This document shows, piece after piece, positions 33,829 to 42,345 of a DNA stretch of 64,000 nucleotides; position 1 is the first letter of the stretch, and each line of letters starts with the position of its first letter. The translations under genes were made by a program, and so were the position numbers. The stretch is taken from the NCBI RefSeq assembly GCF_011764425.1, contig NZ_BLPF01000001.1:1355001-1419000 (forward strand), written 5' to 3'. The notes under the pieces were generated by a model that was not told the origin of the DNA, ran no database searches, and saw only the letters and a list, made by a program, of their open reading frames with translations. This DNA comes from Phytohabitans houttuyneae. GTDB lineage: Bacteria > Actinomycetota > Actinomycetes > Mycobacteriales > Micromonosporaceae.

Positions 33829-34655
33829 TAGTGGCGCTTGATGTGGTCGAAGTCGACCGTGTCGCCGAACCCGGGTGTCTGGAAGAGGTCCCGCGCGTAC
33901 GCCCACAGGACCGGCATCTCGCTCAGCTTCTCCCGGTTGCACTTGAAATGCCCGTGGTACACCGGGTCGAAGCGCACCAGCGTCGTGAAGAGCCGCACGT
34001 CCGCCTCGGTGATGGTGTCACCGACCAGGTAGCGGCTCGCCGCCAGTCGCTCGGAGAGCCAGTCGAGCCGCGCGAAGAGGCGCCCGTACGCCTTCTCGTA
34101 CGCCTCCTGGCCGCCGGCGAAGCCGCACCGGTACACCCCGTTGTTCACGTCGGCGAAGACCACCCGGTTGACCTGGTCGATCTCCGCGCGCAGGTCCTCC
34201 GGGTAGAGGTCGGGCGCACCCGGCCGGTGGTACGCCCGCCACTGCGTCGACATGTCCAGCGTGATCTGCGCGTAGTCGTTGGTCACCACCTGCCCGGTGC
34301 GCACGTCCACGATGGCCGGCACGGTGATGCCGCGGTCGTAGCCGGGGAAGCGGGCGAAGTACGCCTCCTGCAGCCGCTCGATACCCAGCACCGGGTCGCG
34401 ACCGCCCGGGTCCAGGTCGAACGTCCAGCTCCGCTCGTCGTGCGTCGGCCCCGCGATCCCCATCGACAGCACCGTCTCGAGCCCGAGCAGCCGCCGCACC
34501 ACGACGGCGCGGCTCGCCCACGGGCACGCGCGGCTGACGACGAGCCGGTAGCGGCCGGGCTCCACCACGAACCCGTCCCGCCCGTCCGCGGTGATCCGGG
34601 TGGCGATGTAACGCTGGTCGCGGGTGAACTCACCGGAGGAGCTGACGTAGGCCAT
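33639..34655 (-). CDS. Glutathionyl-hydroquinone reductase-like GST (ECM4/YqjG family)
   Basis: Protein of 338 aa of the Xi-class glutathione transferase family. The thioredoxin-like domain has the family's catalytic Cys44 in VSRACPWASR, then GITVPAIVDVRTGQVVTNDY. The helical domain has YLVGDTITEADVRLFTTLVRFDPVYHGHF in two pieces, typical of YqjG/ECM4. These enzymes reduce glutathionyl-hydroquinones; actinobacteria use mycothiol, so the thiol partner may differ. The start is fixed by GGAAGGAGGG. The 3' end overlaps the MFS gene on the other strand. Confidence 0.92.
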   Translation of the reverse strand: MAYVSSSGEFTRDQRYIATRITADGRDGFVVEPGRYRLVVSRACPWASRAVVVRRLLGLETVLSMGIAGPTHDERSWTFDLDPGGRDPVLGIERLQEAYFARFPGYDRGITVPAIVDVRTGQVVTNDYAQITLDMSTQWRAYHRPGAPDLYPEDLRAEIDQVNRVVFADVNNGVYRCGFAGGQEAYEKAYGRLFARLDWLSERLAASRYLVGDTITEADVRLFTTLVRFDPVYHGHFKCNREKLSEMPVLWAYARDLFQTPGFGDTVDFDHIKRHYYEVHRDINPTGIVPAGPDLSGWLTPHGREALGGRPFGEGCEPGPLSETETVPVEHTPLAVAA

Positions 34656-34728
34656 TGCACCCTCCTTCCCCACCCGGCAGAAATCCACACACGTCGCGAT
34701 CCGGCCAGGCCCTGTTTCGAAACGGCTT

Positions 34729-36069
34729 TCAGGCGCGCACAAGCGCGGACAGCAGAGTCGCGAGGGCCTCGACCTCACCGTGCAGGATGCTCCAGAAGTA
34801 CTGCCAGCCGGCGATCTCGGCCTGGCGGTCGGTGTACGTGGAGCGGGCGTGCATCAGCACCCCGTCGGCCGCGGCGATGAAGCTGCGGGCGCGCAGCGAA
34901 AGGGCTGCCGCGTCCTCGGGCGTGACCGTGCCGGCCAGGCCGCTCAGCCCGCCGATGATCGCGCTGATCATGGACTCCAGCTCGACCGGGTCGGTGGCGG
35001 CCAGGGAGATCGGGCGTTCGCAGAGCACGCTCAGGGCTCGCAGGTTGACCGCCAGGCTCTCGACCGGGCCGTGTGGAGAGGCGGTGAGCAGGGAGATGCC
35101 GAGGTCGTCGACGAGGTGCGCGCGGCCGCGTGCCACTCCACCGGACCGCGGGTGCCCGCCGCGCGGTGCCAGTGGTGGGGTCTCGGCGAGCAGTCCGCGC
35201 AGGTACGCGGCGGCGGCCAGCGCGGCGTAGCGTCGCCACGTCGCCTCCGTGCCGCTGTCGCCGTGGTCGCTGATGCCGCGGATGACAAACCACTCCAGCC
35301 CGTTCAGCGAGCTGCTGCGGCCGATGCCTTTGCCCTCCATCTCCAGCGCCCGCAGGTTGTGCCGGGCCGCGAGCGCGTCGCGTACGCGGGCGTCGCGCAG
35401 GGACCGCTCGGAGCTGCCAATCAGTCCATAGTGGACTCGTGGCAGCGGCTGGCCGCCACGCCCGGCTGGCACCTCCAGGCGCGCCACCTCGCTGCCGGGG
35501 GCGCCGGCCAGCGCCACCGCGTTGTCGACCTCCGCCGGGCGGCCGTAGCCGGGCAGCGCGGGCGATCCGCCGAGGTCCAGCCACTGCGTCCAGGTGCCCC
35601 GACCGGTGTACTCCCGCGCCTCGATCAGCGCCGCCCGCTGCACGAGCAGCGGTGACGGCACCGGAAAGCCGTGGCGGAGCCGGGGACCGTCGGCGAGCTG
35701 GTCGACGTGGTCGAAGCCGATCACGCCCCAGGAGGCGACGACGACGTCACCCAGCCGCACGTGGCGCTCGGGCTGGTCCGGGCTCGGCACGCCCGCGGCG
35801 ATGCCGACCATCACCACGATGTTGGTCGAGCGGAAGGTGCGGGCGAGGTTGGTACAGGCCGTGGCCGCGGCGTCGTTTCCCGCGTCGCCGATGATGGTCA
35901 ACGCCACCTGATGTGGACGGCCGGGCACGAGGCTGGGCAGCTCCCCCGCGATGTACGGCGCGCGGTCGTCGTCGACGGCGACAGCGGCGGCCCCGTCCAG
36001 CAGCGCCTCCATCGCGGCGAACTCCTCGGGTAGCGCCGTGACTATGCCGATCGTGGGGGCGAACACCAT
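34729..36069 (-). CDS. PNP/MTAN-type nucleosidase domain fused to a helical C-terminal domain
   Basis: Protein of 446 aa. Residues 1 to about 290 form a nucleoside phosphorylase/nucleosidase (PNP_UDP_1) domain: IGIVTALPEEFAAMEALL with the MTAN-like Glu pair, VVMVGIAAGVP, RLGDVVVAS, ALEMEGKGIG (the ribose-binding Met-Glu) and VIRGISDHGD (catalytic Asp), so all key positions are kept. The remaining 150 residues are Leu/Ala-rich and helical (PVELESMISAIIGGLSGLAG and EIAGWQYFWSILHGEVEALA) and match nothing I know. It follows cinA by 35 nt and is the last gene of the three-gene operon. Domain-fused nucleosidases of this type occur in bacterial conflict and signalling systems. Confidence 0.85.
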   Translation of the reverse strand: MVFAPTIGIVTALPEEFAAMEALLDGAAAVAVDDDRAPYIAGELPSLVPGRPHQVALTIIGDAGNDAAATACTNLARTFRSTNIVVMVGIAAGVPSPDQPERHVRLGDVVVASWGVIGFDHVDQLADGPRLRHGFPVPSPLLVQRAALIEAREYTGRGTWTQWLDLGGSPALPGYGRPAEVDNAVALAGAPGSEVARLEVPAGRGGQPLPRVHYGLIGSSERSLRDARVRDALAARHNLRALEMEGKGIGRSSSLNGLEWFVIRGISDHGDSGTEATWRRYAALAAAAYLRGLLAETPPLAPRGGHPRSGGVARGRAHLVDDLGISLLTASPHGPVESLAVNLRALSVLCERPISLAATDPVELESMISAIIGGLSGLAGTVTPEDAAALSLRARSFIAAADGVLMHARSTYTDRQAEIAGWQYFWSILHGEVEALATLLSALVRA

Positions 36070-36104
36070 CAGTCCTCGCTTCGGGCACGGGATACGGTCA
36101 CGGC

Positions 36105-36617
36105 TCAGGCCGGCTCCACCGCGTACGTGCGAAGCAGCTGCCCGACAAGTTCGGTCAGCGCCGCCTGGGCCGCCCAGGCCCGTACCTCGGCGCGGCTGCC
36201 GTCCGGACCTTTGAGCGTGATCGCACGCGTGCCCGTGGCGTCGGCTATCCCGACGTGGAGCATCCCGACGGGATTGCCGTCCTGCTCCGTCGGACCGGCG
36301 ACGCCCGTGGTGGCGAGCCCCATCGAGGCGCCGAACACGACGCGCACCCGCGCCGCCATCTGGCGTGCGACCTCCGGGCTCACCGGGCCTTGCTCGCGCA
36401 GCACGGCGGGATCGACACCCAGCACGCCGCTCTTCGCCTCGGTGGCATACGTGATCATGCCGCCGACGTAGAACGCCGACGCACCGGCGACGGACGTGAC
36501 GAGCTGCCCGACCAGCCCACCGGTCAGCGATTCCGCGGTGGCCAGCGTCAGGCCGTACCGGCTCAGCAGGGTCGCCGCCGTCAGCGCCTGGCGGGCTCCC
36601 ATCGTCTCTGGCGTCAT
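36105..36617 (-). CDS. CinA C-terminal domain protein (NMN amidohydrolase PncC type)
   Basis: Protein of 170 aa corresponding to the stand-alone CinA/PncC domain, which deamidates nicotinamide mononucleotide to nicotinate mononucleotide in pyridine-nucleotide recycling. Family motifs are LATAESLTGGLVGQLVT, GASAFYVGGMITYATEAK, SPEVARQMAARVR and ATTGVAGPTEQDGNPVG. The usual ESCTGG appears as ESLTGG; the neighbouring Ser is retained. Its ATG overlaps the stop of the upstream two-TM gene by 4 nt, so it is a true operon member and probably not the housekeeping copy. Confidence 0.92.
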   Translation of the reverse strand: MTPETMGARQALTAATLLSRYGLTLATAESLTGGLVGQLVTSVAGASAFYVGGMITYATEAKSGVLGVDPAVLREQGPVSPEVARQMAARVRVVFGASMGLATTGVAGPTEQDGNPVGMLHVGIADATGTRAITLKGPDGSRAEVRAWAAQAALTELVGQLLRTYAVEPA

Positions 36618-37318
36618 TCGAAGATTCCCCTGCCGTTGTTTTGGATGAGCCGGACGAGGTCGGCGGTGTCCTTGTATTCGTACTTACTCGTGCGGGGCAG
36701 CTCCGGATTGGTCGAGTTGGCCGCGCCTTCGAGCGTGAAGGGCAGCTTGACACCCGGCCGCTTGAAATAAAGCGCCGGCTTGTTCAGCACGATCGCCATG
36801 CCGGCCTCGACGAGAACGCTCGACACCAGCGTCTCGGGAAATACGAGCAGGAAGTACCTGCTCTTCTTCAACGCCTCCATGTCATTGCGAAGTCCGACGT
36901 CGACGGCCTCGAAATGGTCCAGCGTCGGCCGGTTTCTTCCCGAGTAGTAGCACTTGAACTTGCAGCGCAGCTCGATCGTCCGGATGAACTTGAGGATGTC
37001 CTTGCGGTGCGCCTCGTAGGACTCCTGGGTCAGTGCGGTCATCGGCGAGGAGATGAACACGTCGTACTCGTACGCGACGGGCTTCGGATCGGGGGCGGCC
37101 ACCGGCGCGAGCACCGGCGTCCGGTGGCTCACGCCGAGCAGTGCCGGCCGCACGATGGCGACGACGGTCGCGGCCAGGACGATGAAAGCGATAACGGCGA
37201 CCAGGATGACGAACGCGCGGTCGGCGTCCTGCACCGCCCTCGCGAGGAGCAGCAACGCTCCCTCGATGACGAGCAGGGAAATCGTGAGAAATCCAAGGAG
37301 AGTCCGGACGCTGCGCAC
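36614..37318 (-). CDS. Two-TM protein with TIR/deoxyribosyltransferase-like domain
   Basis: Protein of about 234 aa. Two TM helices (TLLGFLTISLLVIEGALLLL and AFVILVAVIAFIVLAATVVA) anchor a cytosolic domain with a Rossmann-like flavodoxin fold: EYDVFISSPM, SYEAHRKDILKFIRTIELR, ADVG-like helix LRNDMEALKKSRYFLLVFPE, and SSVLVEAGMAIVLNKPALYF. Glu171 in VEAGMAI sits where nucleoside deoxyribosyltransferases and TIR NADases have their catalytic Glu, and FISSPM resembles their nucleotide-binding start. Hydrolysis of NAD or another nucleotide is inferred. GTG 37318 (GGTAGGG upstream) is chosen; GTG 37348 adds ten residues. First gene of an operon with cinA (4-nt overlap) and a nucleosidase. Confidence 0.8.
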   Translation of the reverse strand: MRSVRTLLGFLTISLLVIEGALLLLARAVQDADRAFVILVAVIAFIVLAATVVAIVRPALLGVSHRTPVLAPVAAPDPKPVAYEYDVFISSPMTALTQESYEAHRKDILKFIRTIELRCKFKCYYSGRNRPTLDHFEAVDVGLRNDMEALKKSRYFLLVFPETLVSSVLVEAGMAIVLNKPALYFKRPGVKLPFTLEGAANSTNPELPRTSKYEYKDTADLVRLIQNNGRGIFE

Positions 37319-37476
37319 GGAGGATGCCCTACCAGCGATCTTTCTCACCGCCTTCGGTCTGCGCGGCCATTTCGCGCAAGCCCCCCGAAAATGCGCTGTC
37401 CGCTGTATTGCCGACGATTCTAGGTGCCGCCACGGCGGGCCGCCGATGCCTCGGGCTGTCATGTATCGGTCATTGC

Positions 37477-37494
37477 TTTCGGTGACAGCCGAAA
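37477..37494. promoter_or_regulatory. Candidate operator in divergent intergenic region
   Basis: TTTCGG-6 nt-CCGAAA dyad between the TIR-like operon and the exported-protein gene; the gap of about 260 nt contains no other feature except a possible minus-strand -10 box (TAGAAT, around 37418-37423). Confidence 0.35.
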
Positions 37495-37582
37495 TGATTG
37501 AGCCGACCGGCCGGCGGAGCGCACCGTATCGGGCGAGAGCCGGTCCGCACGGGGGACCGGCCGTTCCTTCCGGAGGTACCCG

Positions 37583-38215
37583 ATGAAAAGACGCACGATG
37601 CTGGCCGGCGCCGCGGGAATGACCGCCACGGCGGCAGTCGCCCTTCCCGGCCGCGCGGTGGCCGCCACCGACCCGGCCGCCCGGCGGGTCCTGCTGGTCG
37701 GCGCCAACCCCGGCGTCAGCCTTTTCACCGGCGAGCAGCTGACCGCGTTCGCGTCGGTGTGGATCGTGCGGTGGTCGGAGCGCGGCAGCGGCCGTGCCAT
37801 CGTCGTGTGGCACGACGGTCGGGTGCGGGTGCTGGCGACCGACCGGGAGCTGGGTTACTGGCTATCGCAGTACTTCACCCGCAACTTTCCCGAGGTCGCG
37901 GGCGTGCCGTGGCCCGAGCCGGAGGTGCGGCGCGCGGACGTCGACGTCACGCTCGACCTCGCCACCGGTCTCGACGCGCGGGCGCGGGACGTGCGGGTAC
38001 GGATGGAGGGCGTGCTGCACCGGCGCACGTTCAGCACGGACGAGTTCGACCTCGCCGGCACGCCGCACTCGCTGAGCCTTGTGCTCGCGCCCATGCGCAC
38101 CGCGCGGATCACGGTCGGCGGGCTGGCGCTGCCGGGCGAGGTCCAGCTCGGCGGCACCCCGGAGCGTCCCGGCTCGTCGGCGTTCATGGCCGAGGCGGAG
38201 GTGTGGCGGGTCTGA
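37583..38215 (+). CDS. Tat-exported protein of unknown function
   Basis: Protein of 210 aa with a twin-arginine signal, [20 protein letters not shown], cleaved near RAVAA (residue 28). The mature part is mixed alpha/beta ([40 protein letters not shown]) without known catalytic motifs; it resembles uncharacterised actinobacterial exported proteins. A CCGGAGG site precedes the ATG. The gene has its own promoter region and diverges from the TIR-like operon; no functional link is evident. Confidence 0.75.
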
Positions 38216-38254
38216 CCCGCCAGGGCCGCTGGGTCGGCCGCGGCGCGGGCGGTG

Positions 38255-38792
38255 TCATCGGGTGCGGGTGCGGTGCAGCAGCTGGGCGCCGAGCGGGGTG
38301 AGCCAGTGCTGGACGCCGCGGCCGGCGCGGGTGGTCGCGACGAGGCCGGCGGCGCGCAGCGCGGCGGCGTGCTCGGAGGCGGTGGCCGGGCTGGAGCTCA
38401 CCCGCCGGGCCAGCTCGACGGTGCCGCATCCGGTGCCCACCGCGCGCAGGACGGCCGCCCGGGTGCCGCCGAGCAGCCGGGCGAGCGCGTCGTCCGGTGC
38501 CTCGCCGTCGCGGCTGGGCAGCGGGGTGCCGGTCGAGGCCGGCGGCCAGATCGCCACAGAGCGGCTGCACGAACGAGCAGGTCGGGCCGGACGGTGGGGT
38601 GAGCGCCAGCAGCGGCCCGGCGCGGTCGCCCAGTGCCGGCCGGGTGGCGGCGTGCCAGTGCGCGAGCGGCGCGGCGGGCGGGCGCCGCAGCGCGCGGGCG
38701 GCCAGGCCCGCGTCGGCCATCGGCCCGGGATCCGCCTCGAACCGCACGCTCGCGAGGTCAGCCGGGGTCAGCACGATCCGGAGCACCCTCAC
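38255..38792 (-). pseudogene. ArsR/DUF5937-type regulator with internal deletion
   Basis: The N-terminal part, from GTG 38792 ([20 protein letters not shown], up to [17 protein letters not shown]), matches the start of long ArsR-type regulators of about 320 aa. The C-terminal part ([11 protein letters not shown], then [40 protein letters not shown] and [16 protein letters not shown]) is their winged helix in a different frame. About 140 residues that normally separate the two are missing, and the length (538 nt) does not restore a frame by adding one base. It is therefore a deletion remnant. Divergent from the disulfide reductase gene. Confidence 0.7.
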
Positions 38793-38888
38793 ATCCTGCC
38801 CCGGAATCGCGCGCCACGCGCCCCGCGGACCGTGGCCGACGACATACTGTGGACGCGCCGGAGACCGCGACGAGAAGAGATGCGCCCG

Positions 38889-40307
38889 ATGGAATCGACC
38901 GAATACGACCTCATCGTGCTGGGCGCCGGAGCGGTGGGCGAAAACGTCGCCGACCGCGCCGTCCAGGGCGGACTGACCGCCGTGCTCGTGGAGCACGAGC
39001 TCGTCGGCGGCGAGTGCTCGTACTGGGCCTGCATGCCGTCAAAGGCGCTGCTCCGCCCGGCACAGGCGCTGCGCGCCGCGCGCCAGGTGGACGGCGCGAA
39101 GGAGGCGGTGACCGGCGCGCTCGACGTGGCGGCGGTGCTGGCCCGGAGGGACTCGTTCACCCACAACTGGAACGACGAGAGCCAGGTCCAGTGGGCCGAG
39201 GGCACGGGCATCGCGGTCGTGCGCGGCCACGGCCGCCTCACCGCGCCCAAGGAGGTCACGGTCACCACGCCGGACGGCGGCGAGGTCGTGCTGCGCGCCC
39301 GGCACGCGGTGACCATCTCCACCGGCTCCGACCCGCTCATCCCGGACATCGACGGCCTCCACGACGCCGACCCGTGGACCAGCCGCGACGCCACCAGCGC
39401 CAAGGTCGCGCCGGAGAGCCTCGCGATCATCGGCGGCGGCGTGGTCGCCACCGAGATGGCCACGGCGTACGCGAGCTTCGGCACCCAGGTCACGCTGATC
39501 TCGCGCGGCGGGCTGCTGGCCGGCATGGAGCCGTTCGCCGGGGAGATGGTCGCAGAGGCGCTCCGCGACCTGGGCGTCAAGGTGCTGCTACAGACCGCGA
39601 CGACCGGCGTGCACCGCACGGACGACGGCGTCACCGTGACGACCGGCGACGGTGGCACGGTGACCGCGCAGGAGGTGCTGGTCGCGACCGGCCGCACGCC
39701 GCGCACCACGGACATCGGCCTCGACGTGATCGGGCTGACACCGGGCGACTGGCTGGAGACCGACGACACGATGCTGGTCAAGGGCTTCGACTGGCTGTAC
39801 GCGACCGGCGACGTCAACCACCGCGCGCTCCTCACCCACCAGGGCAAGTACCAGGCGCGGGCGGCCGGCGACGTGATCGCCGCCCGGGCCGCCGGCCGGC
39901 CGGTCTCGGACGGCCCGTGGGGCACGCACGCGGCGACGGCGGACCACGAGGCGGTACCGCAGGTGACGTTCACCGACCCGGAGGTGGCGTCGGTCGGCCT
40001 CACGCTGAAGGCGGCCACCGACGCCGGCTACCGGGTCCGCTCCGTCGACTACGAGATCGGAAACGTGGCCGGGGCGAGCGTCTACGCGGACGGGTACAAG
40101 GGCACCGCCCGCATGGTCGTCGACGAGGACCGCAAGGTGGTGCTCGGCGTGACGTTCGTGGGACCGGACGTGAGCGAGCTGCTGCAGGCCGCGACGGTCG
40201 CGGTGGTCGCCCAGGTGCCGATCGACCGGCTGTGGCACGCCGTGCCGGCGTACCCGACGATCAACGAGATCTGGCTGCGCCTGCTGGAGTCGTACGGCCG
40301 GCCCTAA
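38889..40307 (+). CDS. FAD-dependent pyridine nucleotide-disulfide oxidoreductase
   Basis: Protein of 472 aa of the dihydrolipoyl dehydrogenase/mercuric reductase family. The N-terminal FAD-binding motif is [19 protein letters not shown]; the redox-active pair is Cys43/Cys48 in [18 protein letters not shown]. The NAD(P)H-binding motif is [20 protein letters not shown], the second FAD motif WLYATGDVN, and the dimerisation domain carries the terminal [11 protein letters not shown] His-Glu pair. The substrate (lipoamide, mycothione, metal or quinone) is undetermined. ATG 38889 is chosen over 38880. Its stop overlaps the converging acetamidase stop by 4 nt. Confidence 0.92.
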
Positions 40308-41311: not shown

Positions 41312-42345
41312 CCTAGACGATCTATTCCAAGGGGTCAGTGGTCGTAGGCGGTCAGTGAGCGCATGATCGGTTGGCCGGTGTGCCAGTTATGCCAGATGGC
41401 TGCGGTCAGGGCGAGGAGGCGTTGCAGGACGCGGATGGCGACGCCGGCGGGGGTTCGGCCGCCGTGGCGTTCGAGGTTGAGTTGGTCTTTGAGGGTGTCG
41501 TTGACCGACTCGATGTTCTGCCGGACGGCGCGGAGCAGGGTCTTTCCGGGTCGTGGCGGGTCGGTGCGGTACGCGGGCCGGATGACCTCGATGGTGGCTT
41601 CGTTGAGCCAGTCTTCGGTACGGCGGTCGCGGTAGCCCTTGTCCACGACCAGGATCAGACCGTCGGGGTGGTGGAACATGGCCGGTTGCAAACAGATCAG
41701 GTCGACCAGTACGTCACGCTCGTCGGCCTTCGGGTTGGTCAGGGCGAATGCGACGGGTAGGCCGTGCACGGTGGTGACCAGGTGTAGGCGCAGGCCCCAG
41801 AATCTGCGGGAGTGGGAGGCGCAGTAGCCGTATCCGGCCCAGCCGGCCAGGTCGGAGTTTTGGGTGGTGGTGCGGGAGGTGCCGCACTGCACTGGGGTGG
41901 AGTCGGCCAGGCGGATCGGGTGGTGCCACAGGTCGGTGTCGGCGGCCAGCAGCGCGATCAGGTGTGCCAGTTGGGTGGTCAGGGCACGTAGGCGTTTGTT
42001 GTAGCCGGGCTGTTTGGGCAGGTACGGGAACAGGTGCCCGATGTCCTTGCGGGCCCGGCGTAGCCACCGGGTCTCGTGGTGGTGGCCGAGCAGCACCTGC
42101 AGCACCGCGACGGTGATCAGTTCCGCATCGGTGATCTTCGGGTCGATGCCGACCGTAGGTCGGTACCGGTTGAGCTGCGGGGACGCCTTCAACTCGTCGT
42201 CGATCTTCACGTACAGTGCGGTGGCGAGGGTGTCCAGATCGACGTGCACGTGGCCTCCATGGTCATCGTTGCTCAGCAACGTCGATCATGGACGCCCTCG
42301 TCTTCGCTTGCTGCCCCGTACCCCCCTTGGAATAGATCGTCTAGG
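41312..42345 (-). mobile_element. IS982-family-like insertion sequence, complete
   Basis: About 1,034 bp bounded by perfect 23-bp terminal inverted repeats (41312-41334 and 42323-42345; outer end CCTAGACGATCTATTCC). It contains a single intact transposase gene. No convincing target duplication can be read at the junctions. One end carries the TAG stop codon of the adjacent STAS gene; the other end lies 66 nt upstream of the acetamidase gene. Confidence 0.9.
41335..42279 (-). CDS. IS982-type transposase
   Basis: Intact transposase of 314 aa. DDE region: RLADSTPVQCGTSRTT (first Asp), SHSRRFWGLRLHLVTTVHGL and LILVVDKGYRDRRTEDWLNE (second Asp), then RQNIESVNDTLKDQLNLERH with the catalytic Glu. 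The order GYCASxxxxFWGLxLHL is characteristic of IS982/IS5-like elements. ATG 42279 is given; GTG 42249 would start VHVDLDTLATALYV. No frameshift is needed, so the element may be active. Confidence 0.92.
   Translation of the reverse strand: MLSNDDHGGHVHVDLDTLATALYVKIDDELKASPQLNRYRPTVGIDPKITDAELITVAVLQVLLGHHHETRWLRRARKDIGHLFPYLPKQPGYNKRLRALTTQLAHLIALLAADTDLWHHPIRLADSTPVQCGTSRTTTQNSDLAGWAGYGYCASHSRRFWGLRLHLVTTVHGLPVAFALTNPKADERDVLVDLICLQPAMFHHPDGLILVVDKGYRDRRTEDWLNEATIEVIRPAYRTDPPRPGKTLLRAVRQNIESVNDTLKDQLNLERHGGRTPAGVAIRVLQRLLALTAAIWHNWHTGQPIMRSLTAYDH

What the first reader, a model, noticed from the sequence alone, without database searches (positions are those of the whole stretch)
34729..37348. 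Three-gene nucleotide-centred operon: two-TM TIR/deoxyribosyltransferase-like protein, CinA/PncC and a fused nucleosidase
The genes are tightly arranged (4-nt overlap, then 35 nt). The first encodes a membrane-anchored domain with the catalytic-Glu position of TIR/deoxyribosyltransferase enzymes; the second an NMN-deamidase-type CinA domain; the third a nucleosidase with all catalytic positions plus an unknown C-terminal helical domain. All three chemistries converge on NAD/NMN or nucleosides. Such combinations are typical of phage-defence or nucleotide-signalling systems, and I know of no described system with exactly this set.
Basis: partly seen in the sequence, partly recalled or inferred. 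Interest (0 to 1): 0.75.

Follow-up and report, generated by a model that had tools for sequence, protein, structure and literature searches.

The report
Mobile three-gene nucleotide-cleaving defence-like cassette
A bacterium carries a compact set of three genes, missing from close relatives, that appear to cut or process nucleotides, including a membrane-anchored base-cleaving enzyme next to an NMN-removing enzyme; it looks like a new variant of the self-sacrifice systems bacteria use against viruses, but nothing has been tested at the bench.

Summary
Three minus-strand genes (34729-37318/37348) form a unit: g1, two transmembrane helices plus a predicted MilB/DNPH1/deoxyribosyltransferase-fold domain (TIR ranks lower); g2, a lone CinA/PncC domain with the NMN-deamidase active-site residues; g3, a nucleosidase plus an unrecognised C-terminal region. 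In a same-genus genome (G005) the flanks lie 32 bp apart, so 34671-37476, just these genes, is a variable cassette. g1 is rare: 3 of 354 family genomes, counting this one. In G629 it again precedes an accessory CinA, which groups with g2 (99/97); in G684 it precedes a TIR-TPR-S-calcineurin protein. In both it lies shortly after a tRNA gene. g3's nucleosidase belongs to a group fused to CATRA, EAD2 or VMAP, domains of described NTP-dependent conflict systems. The three-gene set was found only here; the g1+CinA pair in two genera. Best reading: an abortive-infection-type, nucleotide-depleting conflict cassette assembled from modules. The g1-CinA pairing is the new part and suggests, untested, an NMN-controlled N-glycosidase reminiscent of SARM1 and NMN deamidase. 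No function was assayed, no defence island was shown, and g3's C-terminal fold was not obtained.

The parts
   Evidence: phrog_23497 E 4e-21
36105..36617 (-). g2: accessory CinA-only protein, ATG overlapping the g1 stop; Pfam CinA match residues 14-158
34729..36069 (-). g3: nucleosidase (PNP_UDP_1) domain, about residues 1-302, plus a C-terminal region of about 140 residues without recognised family
34671..37476 (.). variable cassette: absent in G005, where the flanks are 32 bp apart

Best explanation
A horizontally acquired, modular conflict (abortive-infection-type) cassette that acts on nucleotides. g1 anchors in the membrane and holds a MilB/DNPH1/NDT-fold N-glycosidase that, when triggered, cleaves the base from a nucleotide (NAD+, NMN or a nucleoside monophosphate; substrate inferred only). 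g2 is an NMN deamidase dedicated to this unit that removes NMN, either holding g1 in check or steering its product. g3 is a nucleosidase effector that hydrolyses purine nucleotides, and its C-terminal region would couple it to the trigger. Net effect: growth arrest of an infected cell. Shown: gene set, predicted fold of g1, CinA active-site residues, presence/absence as a unit, a g1+CinA pair in a second genus, kinship of g3 with conflict-system effectors. Inferred: substrates, order of action, trigger, direction of transfer, antiviral role.
For: Empty site in G005 spanning just the three genes; g1 GC 62.6% against 72.2% for the window. g1 is rare and patchy: 3 of 354 family genomes, 1 of 374 by profile in a class sample, both counting the window. 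g1 relatives lie 434 and 202 nt after tRNA-Ala and tRNA-Arg genes. Searching the DNA around g1 of L014 in 31 genomes of that genus, none of the 30 others matched the g1-CinA stretch at E 1e-20 (9 candidates a genome scored). In G684 g1 precedes a protein with a TIR-effector match (PADLOC E 4.3e-7), TPR-S and calcineurin-like phosphoesterase. g3's best PADLOC match is 'PN-superfamily' effector, E 4.1e-13. Of 6 nucleosidase-bearing relatives scanned by Pfam, 1 carries CATASP/CATRA, 1 VMAP, 3 EAD2, 1 nothing more. Kaur et al. 2020 (PMC7159879, passages) place PNPase and TIR effectors, sometimes with a 2TM SLATT gene, in NTP-dependent conflict systems; a table row in PMC10952713 (passage) lists PNP as degrading (d)ATP in Detocs, CBASS and NLR-like systems, citing Rousset 2023 (not seen).
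Against: No defence island was shown: of the window's neighbours 14 were scanned with Pfam only and gave GST, LysR, MFS, oxidoreductase, formamidase, transposase, pectate lyase and other ordinary families, or none. No STAND ATPase, cyclase or caspase is among the three proteins. g3 has no EAD/CATRA match at E up to 1 and no relative of its C-terminal region was found. All three genes together were found only here. g2 stays far below NCBI's equivalog cut-off for nicotinamide-nucleotide amidase (92 of 212 bits). Two other genomes carry a lone CinA close to g2 without g1. No activity or phage test exists.
Confidence: 0.5

Rival explanations
1. Two systems side by side: g1+g2 is a two-gene unit (membrane N-glycosidase with its NMN-deamidase guard), and g3 is an independent nucleosidase effector that was carried in with it.
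For: G629 has g1+CinA without a g3-type nucleosidase in the 18 kb fetched; a PNP_UDP_1 gene 1.4 kb away on the other strand gave no blast match to g3 at E 1e-3. In 20 fetched neighbourhoods of g3 relatives no called protein matched g1 or CinA at E 1e-3 (the gene caller missed the nucleosidase frame in 3 of 20, so the test is weaker there).
Against: In the window all three are co-directional with a 4-nt overlap and a 35-nt gap, and the empty site shows them present or absent together. Three of g3's nearer relatives also follow membrane-protein genes, the position g1 takes here.
Confidence: 0.27
2. A metabolic operon for NAD/nucleotide salvage: N-glycosidase, NMN deamidase and nucleosidase recycle bases and pyridine nucleotides.
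For: All three predicted chemistries fit salvage; CinA active-site residues are present.
Against: A housekeeping CinA with pgsA, HTH and pspA homologues is already present in G000 and G629; a second CinA was found in 2 of 11 genomes examined, both with g1. Patchy distribution, the membrane anchor, and conflict-system kinship of g3 are unusual for salvage.
Confidence: 0.12
3. A nucleoside-antibiotic pathway remnant, since the best structural match, MilB, is a CMP N-glycosidase and BlsM is also listed.
Against: g1 has two transmembrane helices, its neighbours in three loci are CinA or a TIR-TPR-S-calcineurin protein, and the cassette holds no biosynthetic genes.
Confidence: 0.03

Closest known systems
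MilB / DNPH1 (Rcl) nucleoside 5'-monophosphate N-glycosidases and nucleoside 2'-deoxyribosyltransferases
   Different: g1 has an N-terminal two-helix membrane part and no significant sequence match to these families (best: PF05014 E 0.04 for the G629 relative, below cut-off).
TIR and TIR-like NADases (e.g. plant RUN1, SARM1, Swarozyc/DUF4062)
   Different: RUN1 ranks below MilB/DNPH1; no Pfam TIR or DUF4062 hit at E up to 1.
CinA/PncC NMN deamidase
   Same: PF02464 over nearly the whole domain; catalytic Ser and Lys and phosphate-binding residues present.
   Different: Accessory copy without N-terminal domain, coupled to g1, in a clade apart from the housekeeping-type copies; below NCBI's equivalog cut-offs.
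PNPase effectors of NTP-dependent conflict systems (Kaur 2020; CATRA, VMAP, EAD) and the PNP (d)ATP-degrading effectors of Detocs/CBASS/NLR-like systems
   Same: Same nucleosidase domain family; nearest kin fused to CATRA-type regions or beside membrane-protein genes.
   Different: No recognised EAD, CATRA or STAND/caspase partner; neighbours here are g1 and CinA.
TIR + 2TM SLATT pairs
   Same: A TIR/NDT-fold enzyme with a two-helix membrane part (PMC9503650, passage: TIR genes with 2TM SLATT genes in firmicute phages).
   Different: Here fused in one protein; no SLATT profile match at E up to 1.

Membership tests
NDT/DNPH1/MilB N-glycosidase superfamily (g1) | Five-stranded alpha/beta fold of this group | tested here: met
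NDT/DNPH1/MilB N-glycosidase superfamily (g1) | Catalytic Glu at the fold's active site | tested here: inconclusive
   E171 invariant in 3 of 3 and placed after strand 3; no residue-level superposition was available
NDT/DNPH1/MilB N-glycosidase superfamily (g1) | Sequence-profile membership (PF05014) | tested here: not met
   No hit for g1 at E up to 1; 14.5 bits against cut-off 28.8 for the G629 relative
TIR domain (g1) | TIR fold / TIR profile | tested here: inconclusive
CinA/PncC NMN deamidase (g2) | PF02464 / PncC domain above cut-off | tested here: met
   149.3 bits vs 23.5; TIGR00199 115.2 vs 68.9
CinA/PncC NMN deamidase (g2) | NCBI equivalog cut-off for nicotinamide-nucleotide amidase (NF002975) | tested here: not met
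   92.1 bits vs 212
CinA/PncC NMN deamidase (g2) | Active-site residues listed in PMC5384747 (E30, S31, T33, G35, G46, S48, Y58, K63, T105, G106, A108, G109, P110, R145) | tested here: met
   All present in g2 (E29, S30 ... K62 ... R142); C32 is Leu, as in 33 of 35 rows
CinA/PncC NMN deamidase (g2) | NMN deamidase activity | not testable with these tools
   needs assay
PNPase effector of conflict systems (g3) | PNP_UDP_1 domain of the conflict subfamily | tested here: met
   PADLOC PN-superfamily E 4.1e-13; grouped with CATRA-type fusions at 97/96
PNPase effector of conflict systems (g3) | EAD/CATRA/VMAP adaptor or ATPase/caspase partner | tested here: not met
   no Pfam hit in g3 or its C-terminal region at E up to 1; none in g1 or g2
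CBASS | CD-NTase cyclase in the operon (recalled) | tested here: not met
   no cyclase among the three proteins: only an insignificant PADLOC cyclase match in g2 (E 0.026, 11.2 bits, over 23 residues)
Thoeris | ThsA effector (e.g. SIR2-SLOG) with ThsB | tested here: not met
   no SIR2, SLOG or macro hit among the three proteins; definition from the start of the abstract of PMC11204291 in a listing
Detocs | two-component-like sensor and receiver genes with PNP effector (recalled) | tested here: not met
   none among the three proteins
2TM SLATT effector (g1) | SLATT profile match | tested here: not met
   no hit for g1 or its two relatives at E up to 1

The most novel reading that the evidence does not exclude
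A native bacterial NMN-gated death switch: a membrane-bound NDT/TIR-fold N-glycosidase (g1) is activated by, or consumes, NMN, and is held off by its own NMN deamidase (g2); loss of g2 activity or an NMN surge during infection (for instance from NAD-consuming ligation or NAD breakdown) releases g1, and g3 then destroys purine nucleotides. This would be the bacterial counterpart of SARM1 control by NMN, where an introduced bacterial NMN deamidase blocks activation in flies (PMC9788811, abstract and passages).
Probability: 0.13. Interest if true: 0.85.

Novelty: new variant of a known kind. Interest (0 to 1): 0.58.

Why it matters
If right, CinA/PncC, a widespread NAD-recycling enzyme, has been recruited as a dedicated partner of a membrane-bound nucleotide N-glycosidase in a mobile conflict cassette. 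That would make NMN a candidate signal or checkpoint in bacterial immunity and give the NMN control of animal SARM1 a bacterial parallel that can be tested directly. It also shows how nucleosidase effectors of actinobacterial conflict systems are re-paired with new membrane partners.

Tried and rejected
g1 relatives elsewhere: none in plasmids or phages by tblastn, none in two genome-contig scans or in viral contigs (one search was for g3). Those scans need short peptide patterns and miss distant kin; the genome-contig scans returned no relative at all, so absence there is weak. The phylum sample gave 4 of 396 at E 0.01, one being the window; two of the other three were looked at and lie in long ORFs that I judged by eye to be Mur-ligase-like, i.e. 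chance; the third (L003) has stops and was not looked at.

TIR as the primary assignment of g1: considered, ranked below MilB/DNPH1. SLATT for the two helices: no profile hit.

g3's C-terminal region as EAD, CATASP or another adaptor: no profile hit and no blastp or phmmer match below 0.01 among the fetched neighbourhood proteins. Its structure was not obtained.

Direct repeats at the cassette ends: none of 8 or more bases between 34601-34760 and 37331-37560; the longest inverted word was 9 bases. No sigma-70-type promoter in 34500-37700 (other types not covered).

Sinorhizobium plasmid match to g3 (39% over 74 residues): neighbourhood uninformative. Plasmid CinA hits (43 records): 4 neighbourhoods were fetched; Tsukamurella shows pgsA-cinA-HTH-PspA, Georgenia and Levilactobacillus show nothing annotated like g1, Streptomyces is unannotated.

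Empty-site comparison: of 5 same-genus genomes searched, both flanks were joined in 2 (G005, G002); in G003 and G001 only one flank matched in the stretches fetched, and G004 gave only short matches.

In my notebook I wrote that the G629 CinA overlaps g1 as TTGA; that is wrong: the codon there is CTG, and the likelier start is TTG 9152, 41 nt after the g1 stop.

Rows dropped: L011 (own housekeeping CinA) left out of the CinA tree because its blast piece held a stop.

Papers: CinA + TIR domain found 1 paper, unrelated by title. NMN deamidase + phage gave 5; one, PMC8494770, compares the SARM1 TIR NADase with bacterial phage defence and toxin-antitoxin systems, and there NMN deamidase occurs once, in the reference list; the other four are by title about axon biology, SARM1 or NAD enzymes. 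CinA + TIR domain + nucleoside phosphorylase + anti-phage (3 of 4) gave 4, none about this by title. Subscription papers, Rousset 2023 among them, were not seen.
Full report
What is there. The window lies in contig 1 of a genome of 11.3 Mb (G000), window GC 72%. On the minus strand three ORFs follow each other: g1 36614-37348 or, more likely, 36614-37318; g2 36105-36617; g3 34729-36069. g1 stop and g2 start overlap by four bases and g3 starts 35 nt after g2. Third-position GC is 0.86, 0.88 and 0.91. A GST gene follows on the same strand.

g2. A lone CinA/PncC domain (149 bits in Pfam; above NCBI's PncC domain cut-off but below its equivalog cut-offs). Against the active-site list for the Agrobacterium enzyme (PMC5384747, passages), catalytic Ser31 and Lys63 and phosphate-binding Ser48, Tyr58 and Arg145 correspond to S30, K62, S47, Y57 and R142; Cys32 is Leu, as in 33 of 35 rows compared. 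It is an accessory copy: another CinA of this genome and of G629 sits with pgsA, HTH and pspA homologues (in G000 the pgsA and cinA matches fall in one called frame), as in Tsukamurella. Among 11 genomes examined all had CinA and 2 had a second copy, G000 and G629, the two with g1 next to CinA. In a wider sample 136 of 158 family genomes matched; two had two matches, G000 and G537, the latter with equal matches on two contigs.

g3. Residues 1-302 are a nucleosidase of the PNP_UDP_1 family. The EMEG and RGISD motifs align with MTA/SAH nucleosidases and the ALPEE motif is nearly invariant; their catalytic roles are recalled. PADLOC's best match is 'PN-superfamily' effector (E 4.1e-13). Relatives were found in 32 of 190 family genomes at E 1e-6, counting the window (at most 9 candidates a genome scored); in a phylum sample in 4 of 396 at 1e-8, counting the window, with at most 4 scored in the genomes listed. 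Ten proteins from these neighbourhoods were scanned with Pfam: of 6 with the nucleosidase, 1 carries CATASP/CATRA, 1 VMAP, 3 EAD2 and 1 nothing more; of 4 partner genes, 2 are NB-ARC-TPR proteins, one also with EAD2, and 2 have no family. A tree of 21 nucleosidase domains places the window with seven CATRA-type fusions and three membrane-protein-plus-nucleosidase pairs (97/96), near the base, its own place weakly supported (84/63). The CATRA label rests on Pfam for L063 and on phmmer scores above those of nucleosidase-only proteins for the other six; the membrane proteins show 4, 2 and 4 hydrophobic segments. The C-terminal ~140 residues of g3 matched nothing.

One unit. In G005 (same genus) window 34670 and 37477 lie 32 bp apart; in G002 window 34687 and 38890 lie 29 bp apart. 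The first comparison delimits 34671-37476, the three genes and no other; the second also lacks the gene at 37583-38215. The other three same-genus genomes were not informative. No target duplication or terminal repeat was seen. g1 is 62.6% GC against 72.2% for the window. Gain rather than loss is inferred from this and from the rarity of g1.

Where else g1 occurs. 3 of 354 family genomes; 1 of 61 relatives and 1 of 374 class genomes by the PHROG profile; all counting the window. In G629 (another genus) g1, 56% identical over 232 codons, is followed by a CinA, 55% over 169 codons and 60% over the core, likely start 41 nt after g1. In both genes third codon positions differ most and second least (122 vs 51; 88 vs 47), consistent with purifying selection. 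The two g1-linked CinAs pair at 99/97, apart from a group of 28 rows at 99/96; in that group the pgsA setting was seen for the three looked at (Tsukamurella, G527, G629). In G684, g1 (44%) is followed 20 nt later by a 784-residue protein with a TIR-effector match, TPR-S and calcineurin-like phosphoesterase. Both relatives lie downstream of a tRNA gene (434 nt after tRNA-Ala, 202 nt after tRNA-Arg); that tRNA genes are common integration places is recalled. The DNA around g1 of L014 was searched in 31 genomes of that genus: apart from G629, 29 matched the stretch ending at query position 767 or before (g1 begins at 1151), one of them also a downstream piece on another contig, and one had no match at E 1e-20.

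Against the strong form of the finding. The three-gene set was found only in the window. Two genomes (G578, G579) carry a lone CinA 56-57% identical to g2, not beside pgsA homologues and without g1, so this branch of CinA is not tied to g1 everywhere. None of the called proteins in 20 neighbourhoods of g3 relatives matched g1 or CinA (the caller missed the nucleosidase frame in 3). 14 neighbours in the window were scanned, with Pfam only, and do not look like a defence island.

Mechanism. A membrane-bound N-glycosidase-fold protein, an NMN deamidase and a nucleosidase of the conflict-effector family in a variable cassette are most economically read as a nucleotide-depleting, abortive-infection-type system (0.5). 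Published passages support each element: PNPase and TIR effectors, at times with a 2TM SLATT protein, in NTP-dependent conflict systems (PMC7159879, passages); PNPase effectors with death-like adaptor domains (PMC8195603, passages); TIR with 2TM SLATT in phages (PMC9503650, passages); PNP as (d)ATP-degrading (PMC10952713, one passage; PMC10197012, passages, calls it an immune-related ATP nucleosidase); TIR-like DUF4062 NADases in defence (PMC13174449, abstract). The NMN link is the new idea: in flies a bacterial NMN deamidase lowers NMN and blocks dSarm-driven axon loss (PMC9788811, abstract and passages). A bacterial operon that itself pairs a TIR/NDT-fold enzyme with an NMN deamidase would be a natural form of that control. 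Nothing here tests it. Three searches of the held library showed no paper joining CinA or NMN deamidase with a bacterial TIR-type system in this sense; the library lacks most subscription papers.

Verdict. Real, compact, variable between close relatives; domain calls right with a refinement; three-gene conservation absent, g1-CinA pair seen in two genera. New variant of a known kind.

Noticed in passing
L015:8348-11436: In G684 the 2TM N-glycosidase-like gene is followed by a 784-residue TIR + TPR-S + calcineurin-phosphoesterase protein, shortly after a tRNA-Arg gene: another possible conflict pair.
   Followed up: partly
L062:5142-7984, L065:3687-6338, L066:5048-7510: g3-type nucleosidases directly downstream of 494-601-residue membrane proteins without a Pfam family; a possible undescribed two-gene effector system.
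   Followed up: partly
L065:5298-6338, L066:5048-6022: These nucleosidases begin with a stretch (TFNVN...GNH) that looks to me like a bacterial amyloid-signalling motif (recalled, not tested); g3 lacks it.
   Followed up: no
L122:4526-5014 (G579), L123:4812-5177 (G578): The only CinA match in these genomes is of the g2-like type and not beside pgsA homologues; in L122 it neighbours a LemA-like gene (by eye).
   Followed up: partly
family search: 22 of 158 family genomes lack a CinA match at 1e-10 (up to 22 candidates a genome scored); 16 of the 20 listed belong to one genus (g12), suggesting loss or divergence of CinA there.
   Followed up: no
window 34688-38889: In G002 this whole stretch, including the gene at 37583-38215, is missing between the same outer neighbours, so the site looks like a small variable spot.
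   Followed up: partly
window 41335-42249: DDE transposase gene about 4 kb from the cassette.
   Followed up: no
L014:9674-10453: Nucleotidyltransferase / AadA_C-like gene (Pfam, AadA_C just below cut-off) downstream of the G629 g1-CinA pair, opposite strand.
   Followed up: no
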